DNA of 64,000 nt from Dawidia soli (GTDB taxonomy: Bacteria; Bacteroidota; Bacteroidia; Cytophagales; Cyclobacteriaceae), in the NCBI RefSeq assembly GCF_018598185.1, contig NZ_JAHESC010000004.1, forward strand, positions 1 through 64,000, given 5' to 3'. Below the pieces are notes generated by a model. The model saw nothing but the letters and a program-made list of their open reading frames with translations. It was not told the origin of the DNA and searched no databases. Of the stretch, positions 674 to 21,380 are shown piece after piece. The position numbers and the translations under genes were made by a program. Numbering within the stretch: position 1 is the stretch's first letter; every line of letters starts with the position of its first letter.

Positions 674-880
674 CGCCCTTACAGGGCCTGCCTTCATTTT
701 ATACTACGGAACCCAGGCCTCCAGCCTGGGCTATTATATTACGCCCCATCAGGGCTATTCTGCATCTGGCGCGAGTCTCAGCCCCGCCTCGGGGCGAAGA
801 CTTGTGCCTATCACCGCGCCGGTCTCCAGACCGGCATATCACCCCAACCGATAACGCATGCACTACCCTACGGCTATACC
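674..880. repeat. REP-like palindromic repeat cluster, copy 1
   Basis: This intergenic stretch is a chain of short hairpins. Two simple ones come first: GCCCT/AGGGC near 675-687 and a CCCAGGC/GCCTGGG pair near 712-731. The main element is 768-808: arm GGCGCGAGTCT, an inner CCCCG/CGGGG hairpin, then arm AGACTTGTGCC. The last palindrome is GCCGGTCTCCAGACCGGC at 818-835. The same order recurs near 12.7, 21.6 and 40.6 kb. Seen: the sequence match. Inferred: a dispersed REP/REPIN-type element of the sort spread by RAYT transposases. No transposase gene lies in this window. Confidence 0.7.
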
Positions 881-17362: not shown

Positions 17363-18349
17363 TTACGGGGTTACTAATTTTTTAAAAGACGCCAGGGCTT
17401 TGCCCGACTTCAACGCTTCGGCTGCACGGTCCAGTGCTGCGGGCAGACCTGCTGCCTGGTTCGCGGCATAGAGTGCCATGCCGGCGTTGGCCGTCACCAC
17501 CGCATGCTGCGCAGCGGTGCCCTTGCCTTCCAGCACACGCATAAATACCTGCGCGGCTTCTTCTACCGTGTCGCCCCCTTTCAGGTCGGCAACCGTTAAG
17601 CGTGGCAAACCTAAGTCCGCCGGCGACCCTACACGCTCGCCACGGTTGGAGAAGTATTTGAAGTCGCCGGTAAGCGAGATCTCATCATACCCATCCAGCG
17701 AATGCAGGATCACAAACTGCTTGTCGGTGTTCTGATACAGGTACCCATACTGGCGTGCCAGCTCGAGACTAAACACACCCACCAGCTGACGCGTCGGGAA
17801 CGCCGGGTTGACCATCGGGCCGAGCATATTGAAGAAGGTCTTCACGCCAAGCTCCTTGCGTATGGGCGCCACGTTCTTCATGGCCGGGTGGAACAGCGGC
17901 GCGTGCATGAAGCAGATATTGGCGCGGTCCAGGCTTTGTTTGAGTGTATCGATGTCGTTGGTGAACTTGTAACCGAAGTACTCCAGCAGGTTCGATGAAC
18001 CGCTGACCGACGACACGCCGTAGTTGCCGTGCTTGGCCACGGGCTGCCCCGCCGCCGCGACCACAAACGACGACAGGGTCGAGATATTAAAGGTGTTCTT
18101 GCTATCGCCGCCGGTGCCGCAGACGTCGATCACCGGTGCGTCGAATTTCACCGGCAGGCAAAGCTCCAGCATGGCGTCGCGAAAACCCTGCAGCTCGTCT
18201 ACGGTAATGTTGCGCATCATATATACCGTCATAAAGGCAGCGATCTGGCTGAGGTTATACTGGCCCGACGTCAGGTCTATCAGCACCTGGTGGGCGGTTT
18301 CCCGGGTAAGCGACCGGTGGTCGATCAGTTCGGTAAGGATATGTTTCAT
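17363..18349 (-). CDS. trpD: Anthranilate phosphoribosyltransferase
   Basis: The enzyme transfers phosphoribosyl from PRPP to anthranilate. The chosen start at 18349 (MKHILTELID) gives 328 residues, matching the family, and leaves 11 bp after trpG. The longer frame to 18697 would run through trpG. Seen motifs are DVCGTGGDSKNTFNIST (PRPP/anthranilate site), AKHGNYGVSSVSGSSNLLE, and GPMVNPAFPTRQLVGV. Confidence 0.96.
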   Translation of the reverse strand: MKHILTELIDHRSLTRETAHQVLIDLTSGQYNLSQIAAFMTVYMMRNITVDELQGFRDAMLELCLPVKFDAPVIDVCGTGGDSKNTFNISTLSSFVVAAAGQPVAKHGNYGVSSVSGSSNLLEYFGYKFTNDIDTLKQSLDRANICFMHAPLFHPAMKNVAPIRKELGVKTFFNMLGPMVNPAFPTRQLVGVFSLELARQYGYLYQNTDKQFVILHSLDGYDEISLTGDFKYFSNRGERVGSPADLGLPRLTVADLKGGDTVEEAAQVFMRVLEGKGTAAQHAVVTANAGMALYAANQAAGLPAALDRAAEALKSGKALASFKKLVTP

Positions 18350-18360
18350 CGCTGTCGGGA

Positions 18361-18927
18361 TTAATGTTTTAACCAGTTTTCGATCATCTTCGGTCCCTCC
18401 GGGGTCATGATCGACTCGGGGTGGAATTGTACCCCGCGCACGTCGTAGCGCGCGTGGCGCAACGCCATGACCAGGCCTTCGTTGTTCACGGCGGTGATCT
18501 TCAGGTCGGGCGTAAAGCTTTCGGGCATGACCGCCCACGAGTGATAGTGCGTGGCCTGGAAGACCGGCGACACACCGCGGAACATATACTCGTCCGTTTC
18601 CTTCACTTCCACCTGCGAGGTGACGCCGTGCAGTACGCGGGGTATGTTGTACAGGTGGGCGCCATAGACTTCGCCGATGCCCTGGTGGCCGAGGCATACG
18701 CCCAGGATACTTTTCGAACGGCCGTATTCGCGGATGACATCTTTCATAATGCCGGCTTCGTCGGGTATACCCGGACCGGGCGACAACAGGATCTTGTCAT
18801 ACTGTTTGACCGCCTCTACCGAGATCTTGTCATTGCGTACGATGTCGACCGCATACTTCAGCTCGCGAATGATGTGTACGAGGTTGTACGTGAACGAGTC
18901 GTAATTATCGAGTACCAGTAATTTCAT
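18361..18927 (-). CDS. trpG: Anthranilate synthase component II (glutamine amidotransferase)
   Basis: The 188-residue class I amidotransferase supplies ammonia to TrpE. Seen are DNYDSFTYNLVH at the start, LLSPGPGIPDEAG, the nucleophile Cys in ILGVCLGHQ, and the His/Glu pair in VQFHPESIMT. It is not fused to trpD. The gap to trpE is 25 bp. Confidence 0.96.
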   Translation of the reverse strand: MKLLVLDNYDSFTYNLVHIIRELKYAVDIVRNDKISVEAVKQYDKILLSPGPGIPDEAGIMKDVIREYGRSKSILGVCLGHQGIGEVYGAHLYNIPRVLHGVTSQVEVKETDEYMFRGVSPVFQATHYHSWAVMPESFTPDLKITAVNNEGLVMALRHARYDVRGVQFHPESIMTPEGPKMIENWLKH

Positions 18928-18952: not shown

Positions 18953-20350
18953 TCATATCTTTTCAGCCATCAGCACAGCTTTGCGCAGGGCCGTCAGTTT
19001 ATTGTTTACCTCTTGTAATTCGCTTTCCGCCTGCGACTTCGACACCACACCGGCGCCAGCCTGGTAGATCAGGTTGTTGTCCTGGCTCAGGAACGTGCGG
19101 ATCATGATGGCGTGGTTGAACGAACCGTCAAAGCCCATAAAACCAATGGCCCCGCCGTAATAGCCGCGGTTGCCGTGCTCATATTGGTTGATCAGCGACA
19201 TGGCCATGTGCTTGGGCGCTCCCGACAGGGTACCGGCCGGAAAGGTGTCCGCCGCCATACGGATGATCGACGCGCCGGGCGCCAGCGTACCCGTTACTTT
19301 CGACACCAGGTGTATGACGTGCGAGTAATATTGGATCTCTTTGAACACCTCCACCGTTACCTGCGAAGCGTTGCGGCTCATGTCGTTGCGGGCCAGGTCA
19401 ACGAGCATGACGTGCTCGGCATTTTCTTTTTCGTCGGCCGCCAGGCGCTCGGCAATGGCCGCATCTTCCTGGTCGTTGCCCGAACGGCGGAAGGTACCGG
19501 CGATGGGGTATATATGGGCTTTGCCCGACTTTACCTGCAGCTGCGCCTCGGGCGATGAGCCCATCAGCTTAAAGTTGCCGTAGTCGAAGTAAAACAGGTA
19601 CGGCGACGGGTTGATGGAACGCAGCGCGCGGTATACGTTAAACTCATCGCCTTTAAACCCGCACTGGAAGCGGCGCGACAGCACGATCTGGAATACATCG
19701 CCGCGGTAGCAGTGCTCCTTTCCCTTCTCCACTACTTTCAGGAATTCTTCATCGGTGAAGTTGGATTCCTCCCCGTTGACCAGCGAGAACTTATAGGTAG
19801 AGAAGCGGCTGCTGAAGATGATCTGCTCGATGCGGTCAAGCGTCGAGCTGGGTTGCTGATACGCGTGCTCGAAGAGGCTGAGCTCGTTGGAGAAGTGATC
19901 GACGACGATGATATACCGGTAGAATTTATACAGGATATCCGGAATCGTACGGGCTTCGTCGCGGCCTACGTGGATGTCTTCATAGAATCGCACGGCATCG
20001 TATGCCATATACCCGAAGAGGCCCGCGTTGGGATACTTGGTGCTGACAGACGGGTCTACATCGAAGGTGTTGCGGAATTCCTCCAGCTGTTGAATGACAT
20101 TGTCGCGGCCGGCATCGTGTTGTTTGACGGTGCCGTCCGGGTATTGCACCTGGATGCGGCCCTGGTGTACCTGGAAGGAAGCGATGGGGTCGCAGCAGAT
20201 GAACGATAGGCTGTTCTCGTGCCCGTGGTAATCGGAGCTTTCGAGCAGGATGCTGCCGGCGAACACATCGCGCAGCTTGAGGTAAATGTTTACCGGCGTG
20301 AGCGTGTCGGCCAGTAATTTCTTTGCGTACGTAGTGAGGTTATATTTCAT
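18953..20350 (-). CDS. trpE: Anthranilate synthase component I
   Basis: The 465-residue enzyme makes anthranilate from chorismate. The N-terminal segment LLESSDYHGHENS carries the LLES word that forms the tryptophan feedback-inhibition site in known TrpE. The C-terminal chorismate domain has YRGDVFQIVLSRRF, NPSPYLFYFD, GSSPE, PIAGTFRRSG and TFPAGTLSGAPKH. It is the first structural gene of the operon. Its ATG is only 10 bp past the U-run of the attenuator, so control is by both end-product inhibition (inferred from the motif) and attenuation. Confidence 0.96.
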   Translation of the reverse strand: MKYNLTTYAKKLLADTLTPVNIYLKLRDVFAGSILLESSDYHGHENSLSFICCDPIASFQVHQGRIQVQYPDGTVKQHDAGRDNVIQQLEEFRNTFDVDPSVSTKYPNAGLFGYMAYDAVRFYEDIHVGRDEARTIPDILYKFYRYIIVVDHFSNELSLFEHAYQQPSSTLDRIEQIIFSSRFSTYKFSLVNGEESNFTDEEFLKVVEKGKEHCYRGDVFQIVLSRRFQCGFKGDEFNVYRALRSINPSPYLFYFDYGNFKLMGSSPEAQLQVKSGKAHIYPIAGTFRRSGNDQEDAAIAERLAADEKENAEHVMLVDLARNDMSRNASQVTVEVFKEIQYYSHVIHLVSKVTGTLAPGASIIRMAADTFPAGTLSGAPKHMAMSLINQYEHGNRGYYGGAIGFMGFDGSFNHAIMIRTFLSQDNNLIYQAGAGVVSKSQAESELQEVNNKLTALRKAVLMAEKI

Positions 20351-20359
20351 AATCGGCAG

Positions 20360-20397
20360 AAAAAAAAGAAGGCCTGCTGTGTGAACAGCAGGCCTTC
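20360..20397 (-). terminator. trp attenuator terminator
   Basis: Read on the minus strand, a 13 bp perfect stem (5' arm GAAGGCCTGCTGT, loop TCAC, 3' arm ACAGCAGGCCTTC) spans 20397-20368. It is followed by eight U's (20367-20360) just before trpE. The alternative partner for the 5' arm and loop is GTGAGCAGCC at 20431-20422, around the leader stop codon. It can pair GTGA with TCAC, GCAG with CTGC, and CC with GG. That is the expected antiterminator. Confidence 0.92.
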
Positions 20398-20427
20398 GGC
20401 GTTATGGTATCTACATAGTTTGGCTGC

Positions 20428-20484
20428 TCACATATCGTGTTTAGATATATGCCACCACCAAGCTATGTTGTTAAATTTCTTCAT
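20428..20484 (-). CDS. trpL: trp leader peptide with three consecutive Trp codons
   Basis: The short frame encodes MKKFNNIAWWWHISKHDM (18 residues), with TGG TGG TGG at 20460-20452 and TGA at 20430-20428. Under low tryptophan a ribosome stalls at these codons and leaves 20431-20422 free to form the antiterminator. With ample tryptophan the ribosome reaches the stop, masks that segment, and the terminator at 20397-20360 forms. The peptide sequence, the stop-codon position and both RNA structures all fit classical ribosome-mediated attenuation. It starts 18 bp after the stop codon of the THX gene, leaving little room for a separate promoter. Confidence 0.9.
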   Translation of the reverse strand: MKKFNNIAWWWHISKHDM

Positions 20485-20502
20485 GTTATTCTATAGGCAA
20501 TC

Positions 20503-20685
20503 CTATTCCGCTTTTTTCTTGGCGGCAGTTCTTTTAGGTTTTGCAGCAGCGTCAGACGCCACAGCGGCCGATTTTTTAGAAGCGACTCTTTTGATACGCG
20601 CTTTGATGGCTTCCTTGTTTCTGGAAACACCAAAGGAACCCTTTGTACGTTTACCTTTTGCAGTTTTTTTATCTCCTCTTCCCAT
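20503..20685 (-). CDS. 30S ribosomal protein THX
   Basis: The start at 20685 gives 60 residues beginning MGRGDKKTAKGKRTKGSFGVSR, the Thx signature (small basic 30S protein first seen in Thermus and widespread in Bacteroidota). The C-terminal half is a Lys/Ala-rich tail longer than in Thermus. A longer frame to 20790 is not supported. It lies directly upstream of the trp leader on the same strand, so the trp operon may be read from the THX promoter. Confidence 0.85.
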   Translation of the reverse strand: MGRGDKKTAKGKRTKGSFGVSRNKEAIKARIKRVASKKSAAVASDAAAKPKRTAAKKKAE

Positions 20686-20767
20686 TATTGTGAGCTTGTT
20701 TGGCTTATTTGGTCGGCAATGATAATAAAGTCCGACAGGATTCCAAAATGGAAGAAGGATTTTTGAA

Positions 20768-21151
20768 TTATTCTTTGTCCTCGTCCTCAATTTTGAGGAG
20801 GGAATCGATCAGGCGGTTCACCGAGTCCTGGAAGTCATTCACACCGGTCTCGGGCACCTTGTTCGCAGGGCCGCCTTTTTCGGGTGCCCGCTCGATCATC
20901 CGGTCGATCTGTGCCTCCGGCACCGACATGACCGTCGCCCCCGGATAGAAGTTCCGGAGCCGCACCAGGATCTCAAACCCCTTGATCTCGGCCTCCGAAA
21001 AGATGATCAGGTCGGGCTGGTCATCGGTCAGAGAGAACTCTTCCGTATGAAAGCCGCGCACTACATAACCCTCCATTTCCAGGTTACTTTTGATATCCTG
21101 GTTCTGAAGTTTTTTGCCCACTAACCAAACCGTTTTTGTTACCGTTTCCAT
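20768..21151 (-). CDS. Hypothetical protein, receiver-like
   Basis: The start METVTKTVWLVG at 21151 gives 127 residues. The pattern VWLVGKKLQNQDIKSNLEMEGYVV ... PDLIIFSE ... GFEILVRLRNFYPGATVMSV alternates strands and helices as in a response-regulator receiver. However, the acidic pocket and the conserved Lys are not clear, so it may be a pseudo-receiver. The C-terminus is acidic (KIEDEDKE). It lies 82 bp upstream of THX on the same strand. No function is assigned. Confidence 0.6.
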   Translation of the reverse strand: METVTKTVWLVGKKLQNQDIKSNLEMEGYVVRGFHTEEFSLTDDQPDLIIFSEAEIKGFEILVRLRNFYPGATVMSVPEAQIDRMIERAPEKGGPANKVPETGVNDFQDSVNRLIDSLLKIEDEDKE

Positions 21152-21380
21152 GTGCTTTATTCTTTGAACTACCGGCATATACGGCAAACGACATGCCACC
21201 GGTTTTGAAATCTCTTGACTTTTAACTAAATGCCTCTTTACGGATTAAAAAAACGATTGTTGGGCCTTAGCCATTTTAAGATGTTTTTAAGGTCGTGTGT
21301 CCGCAAACGGGGGTGCAAATGCATATTTACGGATGGATCAGCGTCCGGGCTTCGGGCTAAAAGAGGGCTTTCAGGGGGAT

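What the first reader, a model, noticed from the sequence alone, without database searches (positions are those of the whole stretch)
20360..20484. Ribosome-mediated trp attenuator with a WWW leader peptide in a Bacteroidota trp operon
Three elements agree. The leader peptide MKKFNNIAWWWHISKHDM has three adjacent Trp codons. A 13 bp terminator stem with eight U's sits just before trpE. The alternative segment GTGAGCAGCC, at the leader stop codon, pairs with the terminator's 5' arm and loop (GTGA:TCAC, GCAG:CTGC, CC:GG). A ribosome stalled at the Trp codons leaves that segment free; one at the stop covers it. The peptide is too short for routine gene callers and would be missed in annotation.
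Basis: partly seen in the sequence, partly recalled or inferred. Interest (0 to 1): 0.8.

Follow-up and report, generated by a model that had tools for sequence, protein, structure and literature searches.

The report
Trp attenuator behind a ribosomal-protein gene
The bacterium's tryptophan genes are preceded by a tiny gene rich in tryptophan codons and an RNA stop hairpin that together should sense tryptophan, a switch of a known type; the less expected part is that in this group of bacteria it sits directly behind a ribosomal-protein gene whose promoter it seems to share.

Summary
Before trpE (minus strand) lie an 18-codon frame with three adjacent Trp codons (20484-20428), a 13-bp terminator with eight U, and an antiterminator that is better than described: an uninterrupted 9-bp helix, 20431-20423 with 20389-20381. 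A short ATG frame with paired Trp codons precedes trpE in 290 of 303 Bacteroidota regions examined, against 67 of 3030 shuffles.

The kind is known: Rfam RF01692 "Bacteroid-trp". This copy scores 29.2 bits, threshold 49, and RF01692 finds 0 of 118 genomes of the window's family.

Less expected: in one TrpE clade, 40 of 43 rows have the bTHX ribosomal-protein frame ending -1 to 25 nt before the leader ATG, and 0 of 75 outside it. A promoter-like site lies before bTHX in 36 of 39 loci and inside it in 0 of 39. So the window's trp operon is probably read from the bTHX promoter, the attenuator doubling as bTHX terminator. No expression data were available.

The parts
20744..20747 (-). -33 element TTTG of the predicted bTHX promoter
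   Evidence: 19-nt spacer to the -7 element; motif only
20717..20724 (-). -7 element TATCATTG (5 of 6 to TAnnTTTG) of the predicted bTHX promoter
   Evidence: promoter-like site before bTHX in 36 of 39 clade loci
20503..20685 (-). bTHX, 30S ribosomal protein THX, 60 aa; stop 18 nt before the leader ATG
   Evidence: NCBIfam TIGR04560 39.8 bits, cut-off 26; coordinates
20428..20484 (-). trp leader peptide MKKFNNIAWWWHISKHDM
   Evidence: WW/WxW ATG frame in 290 of 303 regions
20452..20460 (-). three adjacent Trp codons (predicted stall site)
20444..20468 (-). segment 1 (5' arm of the 1:2 protector hairpin, holds the Trp codons)
   Evidence: in 25 chosen relatives 86.5% of cells paired; 18 cells changed on both sides (0 of 500 shuffles as high), 6 such pairs (49 of 500 as high)
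20413..20436 (-). segment 2 (3' arm of the 1:2 hairpin, spans the leader stop codon)
20423..20431 (-). antiterminator core in segment 2, GUGAGCAGC, overlapping the stop codon 20430-20428
20381..20389 (-). segment 3 partner of the antiterminator, GCUGUUCAC, in the terminator 5' arm and loop
20368..20397 (-). intrinsic terminator hairpin (3:4), 13 bp
   Evidence: 100% of 299 counted cells paired in 25 chosen relatives, 4 pairs changed on both sides (18 of 500 shuffles as high)
20360..20367 (-). terminator U tract (8 T)
18953..20350 (-). trpE, first regulated gene
   Evidence: Pfam PF00425 and PF04715; best NCBIfam model TIGR00564 is below its cut-off, 410 against 517.7
18361..18927 (-). trpG (glutamine amidotransferase)
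   Evidence: PF00117; trpG by place in the operon
17363..18697 (-). trpD; the listed ORF start is probably too far upstream (domain begins at residue 118)
   Evidence: PF00591, PF02885
16545..17348 (-). trpC
   Evidence: PF00218
15910..16539 (-). trpF
   Evidence: PF00697
14732..15913 (-). trpB by place in the operon (PALP family enzyme)
   Evidence: PF00291
13885..14775 (-). trpA (listed ORF start probably too far upstream; domain begins at residue 46)
   Evidence: PF00290
12878..13888 (-). DAHP synthase, last gene of the probable operon
   Evidence: PF00793, NF006421

Best explanation
It is a ribosome-mediated transcription attenuator of the trpEGDCFBA-DAHP synthase operon with the classical four-segment layout. 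Transcription probably starts upstream of bTHX and runs through bTHX and then the 18-codon leader. If charged Trp-tRNA is scarce, the leading ribosome stalls at the three Trp codons; segment 1 is then occupied, segment 2 pairs with segment 3 as soon as it emerges, the terminator cannot form and the trp genes are read. If Trp is plentiful, the ribosome reaches the stop codon, which lies inside segment 2, and covers it; segment 3 pairs with segment 4 and transcription ends after bTHX and the leader. Without leader translation the 1:2 hairpin also leaves the terminator free. Shown: the sequence elements, their conservation, base-pair changes on both sides in the 1:2 and 3:4 stems, clade-wide bTHX adjacency. 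Inferred: stalling, Trp response, transcription start, read-through from bTHX, and how ribosomes reach the leader start.
For: Leader, terminator and antiterminator at the stated places. Trp frame in 290 of 303 trpE upstreams, 248 of 303 with WWW, against 67 of 3030 shuffles, none of them with WWW. A terminator after the frame in 261 of 303, against 2 frame-plus-terminator cases in 3030 shuffles. The 1:2 and 3:4 stems show changes on both sides in 25 chosen relatives; the 2:3 helix forms in all 204 counted cells. In 108 of 261 leaders the best 2:3 duplex region begins 1-3 nt before the stop codon, the commonest place. The 2:3 hairpin is -14.0 kcal/mol and free when the modelled ribosome edge is at any of the three Trp codons, hidden at the stop. 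bTHX: 40 of 43 rows of one TrpE group (SH-aLRT 100) have it -1 to 25 nt before the leader, 0 of 75 outside; promoter-like site before bTHX in 36 of 39, inside it in 0 of 39. The same genome has His-rich and Phe/Tyr-rich leaders with terminators before hisG and the prephenate dehydratase gene.
Against: No expression, ribosome-profiling or transcription-start data were available. The 2:3 helix is nearly invariant in the clade (one pair varies, to G-U), so it gives no covariation support there. Across the tree GTGA at the stop and TCAC in the hairpin occur together in 55 of 106 rows, but independent pairs give on average 1.5 for and 0.4 against, not significant. 2:3 duplex energies beat all 50 shuffles in only 56 of 261 leaders. 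In the 1:2 stem the count of pairs changed on both sides is reached by 49 of 500 shuffles, and in the terminator stem the number of further pair types is below the shuffled mean (7 against 8.3). The full-length minimum-energy fold always keeps the terminator, so the switch must be kinetic. 13 of 303 upstreams lack the frame, among them all 3 examined rows of one family of the same class, f11.
Confidence: 0.92

Rival explanations
1. The leader has its own weak promoter just upstream (box TAGGATTG, 13 nt before the ATG) and bTHX is only a neighbour; the attenuator itself works as described.
For: The window box scores 5 of 6 to TAnnTTTG. Outside the close-bTHX set 152 of 249 leaders have a perfect box within 32 nt of the ATG.
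Against: No box of 5 or 6 with TTTG at 17-23 nt spacing inside bTHX or the gap in 39 of 39 loci, window included. The sister L033 lacks the box (score 3) and has a gap of only 6 nt. Boxes of 5 or 6 in 4 of 41 close-bTHX leaders (the window is one of the 4) against 188 of 226 without bTHX.
Confidence: 0.2
2. The hairpin is just the constitutive bTHX terminator and the Trp-rich frame is incidental; the trp genes are transcribed from another promoter downstream.
For: A terminator is expected after bTHX; bTHX adjacency is clade-wide.
Against: A Trp frame is found in 290 of 303 regions, 226 of these 290 without any bTHX hit within 500 nt of sequence searched (176 regions hold only 400 nt). The antiterminator overlaps the leader stop. 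trpE begins 9 nt after the U tract, little room for a promoter.
Confidence: 0.04
3. A Trp- or tRNA-binding leader (T-box, TRAP site, riboswitch) rather than ribosome stalling.
For: Such systems control trp genes elsewhere (established knowledge).
Against: No T-box or other sensor RNA family at gathering threshold in the window; in the lax scan of 20300-20800 RF01692 is the only trp-related family. Conservation lies in a frame with Trp codons. TRAP sites were not searched for.
Confidence: 0.02
4. The leader peptide also has a function of its own in trans, as reported for peTrpL of Sinorhizobium meliloti.
For: Precedent only (PMC7298713, start of the abstract seen in the listings).
Against: Peptide sequence outside the Trp run varies strongly between lineages. 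Not tested.
Confidence: 0.03

Closest known systems
Rfam RF01692 Bacteroid-trp (Weinberg et al. 2010, PMC2864571: two passages seen, one of them the Table 1 row)
   Same: Bacteroidota trp leader RNA; the model aligns over its full length 1-131 to 20504-20387 in register with ATG and Trp codons. 2 of 12 relatives scanned pass its threshold: L155 79.0 and L090 (Allomuricauda taeanensis) 61.9 bits.
   Different: 29.2 bits against a gathering score of 49; RF01692 found in 0 of 118 genomes of the window's family (strict filters, 25 candidates scored in each listed genome). The model ends in the terminator 5' arm, so it does not include the full terminator.
Classical enterobacterial trp attenuator (Rfam RF00513 Trp_leader)
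   Same: Leader peptide with adjacent Trp codons, 1:2, 2:3 and 3:4 pairings, stop codon in segment 2, U tract (comparison from established knowledge).
   Different: Three adjacent Trp codons here instead of two (recalled for E. coli); no RF00513 match; bTHX directly upstream.
Leader-peptide attenuation reported in Flavobacterium psychrophilum (PMC9723704; section on 5' cis-regulatory RNAs read; passages)
   Same: Reports strong clues for leader-peptide attenuation upstream of amino-acid biosynthesis operons and names structured 5' elements before pheA and hisG. The window's genome has Phe/Tyr and His leaders before its prephenate dehydratase and hisG genes.
   Different: trp and tryptophan have 0 occurrences in its main text; its supplements were not seen.
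Leaderless leader peptides of actinobacterial attenuators
   Same: Leader frame beginning at or near the transcript 5' end; recalled for mycobacteria and corynebacteria, not read here.
   Different: Predicted here from the -7 box for Bacteroidota relatives, not for the window's own clade.

Membership tests
Ribosome-mediated trp attenuator (general kind) | Short frame with adjacent Trp codons upstream of trp genes | tested here: met
   20484-20428, WWW; such a frame in 290 of 303 regions. That it is translated was not tested.
Ribosome-mediated trp attenuator (general kind) | Intrinsic terminator between leader and first structural gene | tested here: met
   20397-20360; stem kept through changes on both sides
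Ribosome-mediated trp attenuator (general kind) | Mutually exclusive antiterminator, free when the ribosome stalls at Trp and covered at the stop | tested here: met
   By sequence and folding only: 20431-20423 with 20389-20381, stop codon inside; no covariation support for this helix
Ribosome-mediated trp attenuator (general kind) | Read-through responds to Trp or charged Trp-tRNA | not testable with these tools
   No expression data
Rfam RF01692 Bacteroid-trp | Score at or above the gathering threshold (49 bits) | tested here: not met
   29.2 bits, E 0.12 and 0.29
Rfam RF01692 Bacteroid-trp | Full-length alignment in register upstream of trp genes in Bacteroidota | tested here: met
   Model 1-131 to 20504-20387; next gene trpE
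Rfam RF00513 Trp_leader | Covariance-model match | tested here: not met
   No hit at gathering or at E up to 5
T-box leader | Covariance-model match | tested here: not met
   No hit
bTHX (TIGR04560), the upstream gene | NCBIfam score above cut-off | tested here: met
   39.8 bits, cut-off 26

The most novel reading that the evidence does not exclude
In the Chryseolinea/Parachryseolinea clade the trp leader has no promoter of its own and is the second frame of the bTHX transcript: one growth-linked ribosomal-protein promoter feeds the trp operon, the attenuator terminator doubles as the bTHX terminator, the attenuated RNA is simply the bTHX mRNA, and leader translation is coupled to bTHX termination (stop and start overlap or lie 0-25 nt apart). 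In much of the rest of the phylum the leader mRNA is near-leaderless. Trp supply would then be tied to ribosome synthesis, with Trp starvation as the only gate.
Probability: 0.65. Interest if true: 0.6.

Novelty: new member of a known kind. Interest (0 to 1): 0.4.

Why it matters
The core is ordinary: a trp attenuator of a kind with an Rfam entry. It matters in three modest ways. The known model finds none of the 118 genomes searched in the window's family, although a Trp-rich leader frame precedes trpE in 109 of 111 regions from that family, so annotation by that model undercounts it. The bTHX-trp unit, if confirmed, would be an amino-acid operon driven by a ribosomal-protein promoter with attenuation as the only visible gate. 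And near-leaderless leaders (predicted 5' UTR of 0-7 nt in 99 of 152 leaders with a perfect box) would offer a natural reporter for transcription-translation coupling in bacteria described as lacking Shine-Dalgarno sequences (PMC9723704, passage).

Tried and rejected
Own promoter for the window leader: box of 5 of 6 but no -33 partner, and no such box in the sister L033. TGGTGGTGG count as evidence: not enriched in the genome, 211 against 207 control. First bTHX search by a regular expression found 14 of 290 within 120 nt of the leader; replaced by a profile search that found 41 within 25 nt and 23 further off. First upstream scan read the minus-strand loci in the wrong orientation and was redone. 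Independent-pairs test of the antiterminator: not significant. The same test of bTHX adjacency against the -7 box had only 2 supported pairs and says nothing. ilvD and homoserine dehydrogenase genes: no leader-terminator pair found within 900 nt before the domain match at L348-L351.

Literature: the listings showed no report of a bTHX-trp unit or of a trp attenuator in this family; these show only the top rows (8 of 3,579, 6 of 32, and none of those listed held the THX term), and the library holds open-licence PMC papers only. Three papers hold the term Bacteroid-trp; two of them (PMC4977773, PMC6414381) were not opened. PMC4833913 was read in part (1 of 3) and PMC2965389 in passages: the latter, from 2010, knew of no leader-peptide system outside Proteobacteria and Actinobacteria apart from its own Firmicutes finding and ermC. 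Vitreschak et al. 2004 (attenuators predicted also in Bacteroidetes/Chlorobi) is recalled from memory and was not seen.

Limits of counts: of 111 family genomes with trpE, 109 upstreams were fetched (2 partial matches left out), plus 3; one exact duplicate was dropped. Of 322 matching genomes, 6 same-order, 83 same-class and 32 other-class regions were examined; the other-class ones were hand-picked from the listed rows, and the small-genome group f18 was not examined. Only ATG starts were scanned, so some of the 13 misses may use another start (L302 keeps a terminator). Some species occur in both the unnamed and the GTDB sets; only exact duplicates over 150 nt were dropped. The 25 sequences of alignment A1 were chosen as near relatives.

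Full report
What is there. On the minus strand of the window a probable operon trpEGDCFBA plus a DAHP synthase gene runs from 20350 to 12878. Before trpE, the leader frame 20484-20428 reads MKKFNNIAWWWHISKHDM, with Trp codons at 20460-20452; the terminator is 20397-20368 followed by eight T. The nearest named relative by TrpE is Parachryseolinea silvisoli (95%), so the genome is probably Cytophagales of the Chryseolinea group (placement partly recalled); the window's own assembly is unnamed (7.48 Mb, 122 contigs).

Structure. The minimum-energy fold of the 135-nt leader (z -5.7, 0 of 200 shuffles as good) shows a 21-pair hairpin between 20468-20444 (segment 1, holding the Trp codons) and 20436-20413 (segment 2, spanning the stop codon), and the 13-bp terminator. 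The alternative pairing is 20431-20423 with 20389-20381, nine consecutive pairs with one G-U, -14.0 kcal/mol as a hairpin against -23.9 for the terminator. With the ribosome edge set, by assumption, 11 nt after the A-site codon, stalling at any of the three Trp codons leaves this pairing free in a transcript that ends before segment 4 (-16.2); at the stop codon it is covered. The full transcript always prefers the terminator, so the choice must be made while RNA is being made.

Conservation. In 25 chosen near relatives (alignment A1) the terminator stem pairs in 100% of 299 counted cells with four pairs changed on both sides, 18 of 500 shuffles as high, but fewer further pair types than shuffles (7 against 8.3). 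The 1:2 stem pairs in 86.5% of cells with six such pairs and 18 such cells; no shuffle reached the cell count, but 49 of 500 reached the pair count. The 2:3 helix forms in all 204 counted cells but is nearly invariant, which fits and does not prove it. A scan of 303 trpE upstreams (313 held; 8 duplicates and 2 too short dropped) found a short ATG frame with WW or WxW in 290: 109 of 111 own family, 6 of 6 order, 79 of 83 class, 27 of 32 other classes, 69 of 71 GTDB contigs; 248 of 303 have WWW; 261 of 303 have a terminator after it. Dinucleotide shuffles gave 67 of 3030 frames, none with WWW, and 2 with a terminator; the reverse strand gave 1 of 303. Frames with runs of three of another residue, 12 residues tried, occur in at most 14 of 303 regions for any one residue (Ser). 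The 13 misses partly cluster: the three examined genomes of family f11 all lack the frame and have no terminator found (L225, L230, L233).

Antiterminator across lineages. The best segment-2 to segment-3 duplex region begins 1-3 nt before the leader stop in 108 of 261 leaders, by far the commonest place, but its energy beats all 50 shuffles in only 56 of 261. GTGA at the stop goes with TCAC in the hairpin in 92 of 109 leaders, against 26 of 152 without GTGA; on the TrpE tree this is carried by few events and independent pairs are not significant. Some lineages (L010, L054) place the antiterminator inside the peptide, 22 nt before the stop.

Known family. At gathering thresholds Rfam finds nothing at the leader, but a lax scan aligns RF01692 Bacteroid-trp over its full length to 20504-20387 at 29.2 bits, threshold 49; 2 of 12 relatives scanned pass. 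RF01692 is in Table 1 of Weinberg et al. 2010 with RNA y, cis-reg y, switch n, taxon Bacteroidetes (PMC2864571, passage seen). It was found in 0 of 118 genomes of the window's family (strict filters). Transcriptome papers mention leader-peptide attenuation in Flavobacterium psychrophilum (PMC9723704, one section read) and leader-like sORFs in Bacteroides thetaiotaomicron (PMC7366714, passages). So the window's element works like Bacteroid-trp and is very probably its homologue, though it fails the formal threshold.

Promoters and bTHX. In F. psychrophilum the TAnnTTTG box lies at -12 to -5 of the start (PMC9723704, passage). Of 249 leaders without a close bTHX, 152 have a perfect box within 32 nt of the ATG, 93 of these 152 also with TTTG at -33 spacing; by the F. 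psychrophilum rule 99 of the 152 have a predicted 5' UTR of 0-7 nt and none is negative. UTRs under 10 nt are about 3.7% in B. thetaiotaomicron and leaderless mRNAs 5.5% in F. psychrophilum. The other 97 of 249 have no perfect box, and my choice among in-frame ATGs could shift single cases. In the window's clade the picture differs. The 60-aa frame 20685-20503 is bTHX (TIGR04560), 18 nt before the leader. By profile search 41 of 290 leaders have bTHX ending -1 to 25 nt before the ATG; boxes of 5 or 6 are seen in 4 of these 41, the window among them, against 188 of 226 without bTHX and 21 of 23 with bTHX further away. On a TrpE tree of 118 rows, 40 rows with close bTHX fall in one 43-row group (SH-aLRT 100; quick tree, no bootstrap), 0 of 75 outside; the exceptions inside are L060, L057 (36 nt) and L040; the label needs four changes against 33.7 in shuffles. 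Before bTHX, 36 of 39 loci have a -7-like box with TTTG at 17-23 nt spacing; inside bTHX and the gap 0 of 39 do. In the window this is TTTG 20747-20744 and TATCATTG 20724-20717, predicting a start near 20712.

Reading. I take the attenuator as settled on sequence grounds (0.92) and the shared bTHX promoter as likely (about 0.75 within that), both without expression data. How ribosomes reach the leader start, by coupling to bTHX termination or on their own, is open. The genome uses the same device elsewhere: hisG has a leader with five adjacent His codons and the prephenate dehydratase gene one rich in Phe and Tyr, each followed by a terminator.

Noticed in passing
L346 (G000:C34), upstream of hisG: Leader frame MINTITIGFHHHHHVLHTVRGMAY with five adjacent His codons, followed by a terminator: a probable His attenuator in the same genome.
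   Followed up: partly
L347 (G000:C33), upstream of the prephenate dehydratase gene: Leader frame MNTNTFFYFYYYFFRPQTGL rich in Phe and Tyr, followed by a GC-rich hairpin and a run of T: may sense Phe and Tyr together.
   Followed up: partly
window 20503-20685 and 40 of 290 other leaders: bTHX directly before the trp leader in one clade, with the promoter-like site before bTHX.
   Followed up: yes
upstream of leaders in relatives without close bTHX (for example L090, L150, L022): TAnnTTTG box often ends 4-11 nt before the leader ATG, predicting near-leaderless leader mRNAs.
   Followed up: yes
L225, L230, L233 (family f11): All three examined genomes keep trpE but show no Trp-rich ATG frame and no terminator; lineage loss or another control.
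   Followed up: no
window 712-756, + strand: Match to Rfam RF01687 Acido-Lenti-1, 39.1 bits, gathering 37; the 2010 table names only Acidobacteria and Lentisphaerae for it.
   Followed up: no
window 20768-21199, - strand: 143-aa ORF before bTHX with no Pfam or NCBIfam match at E 0.001.
   Followed up: no
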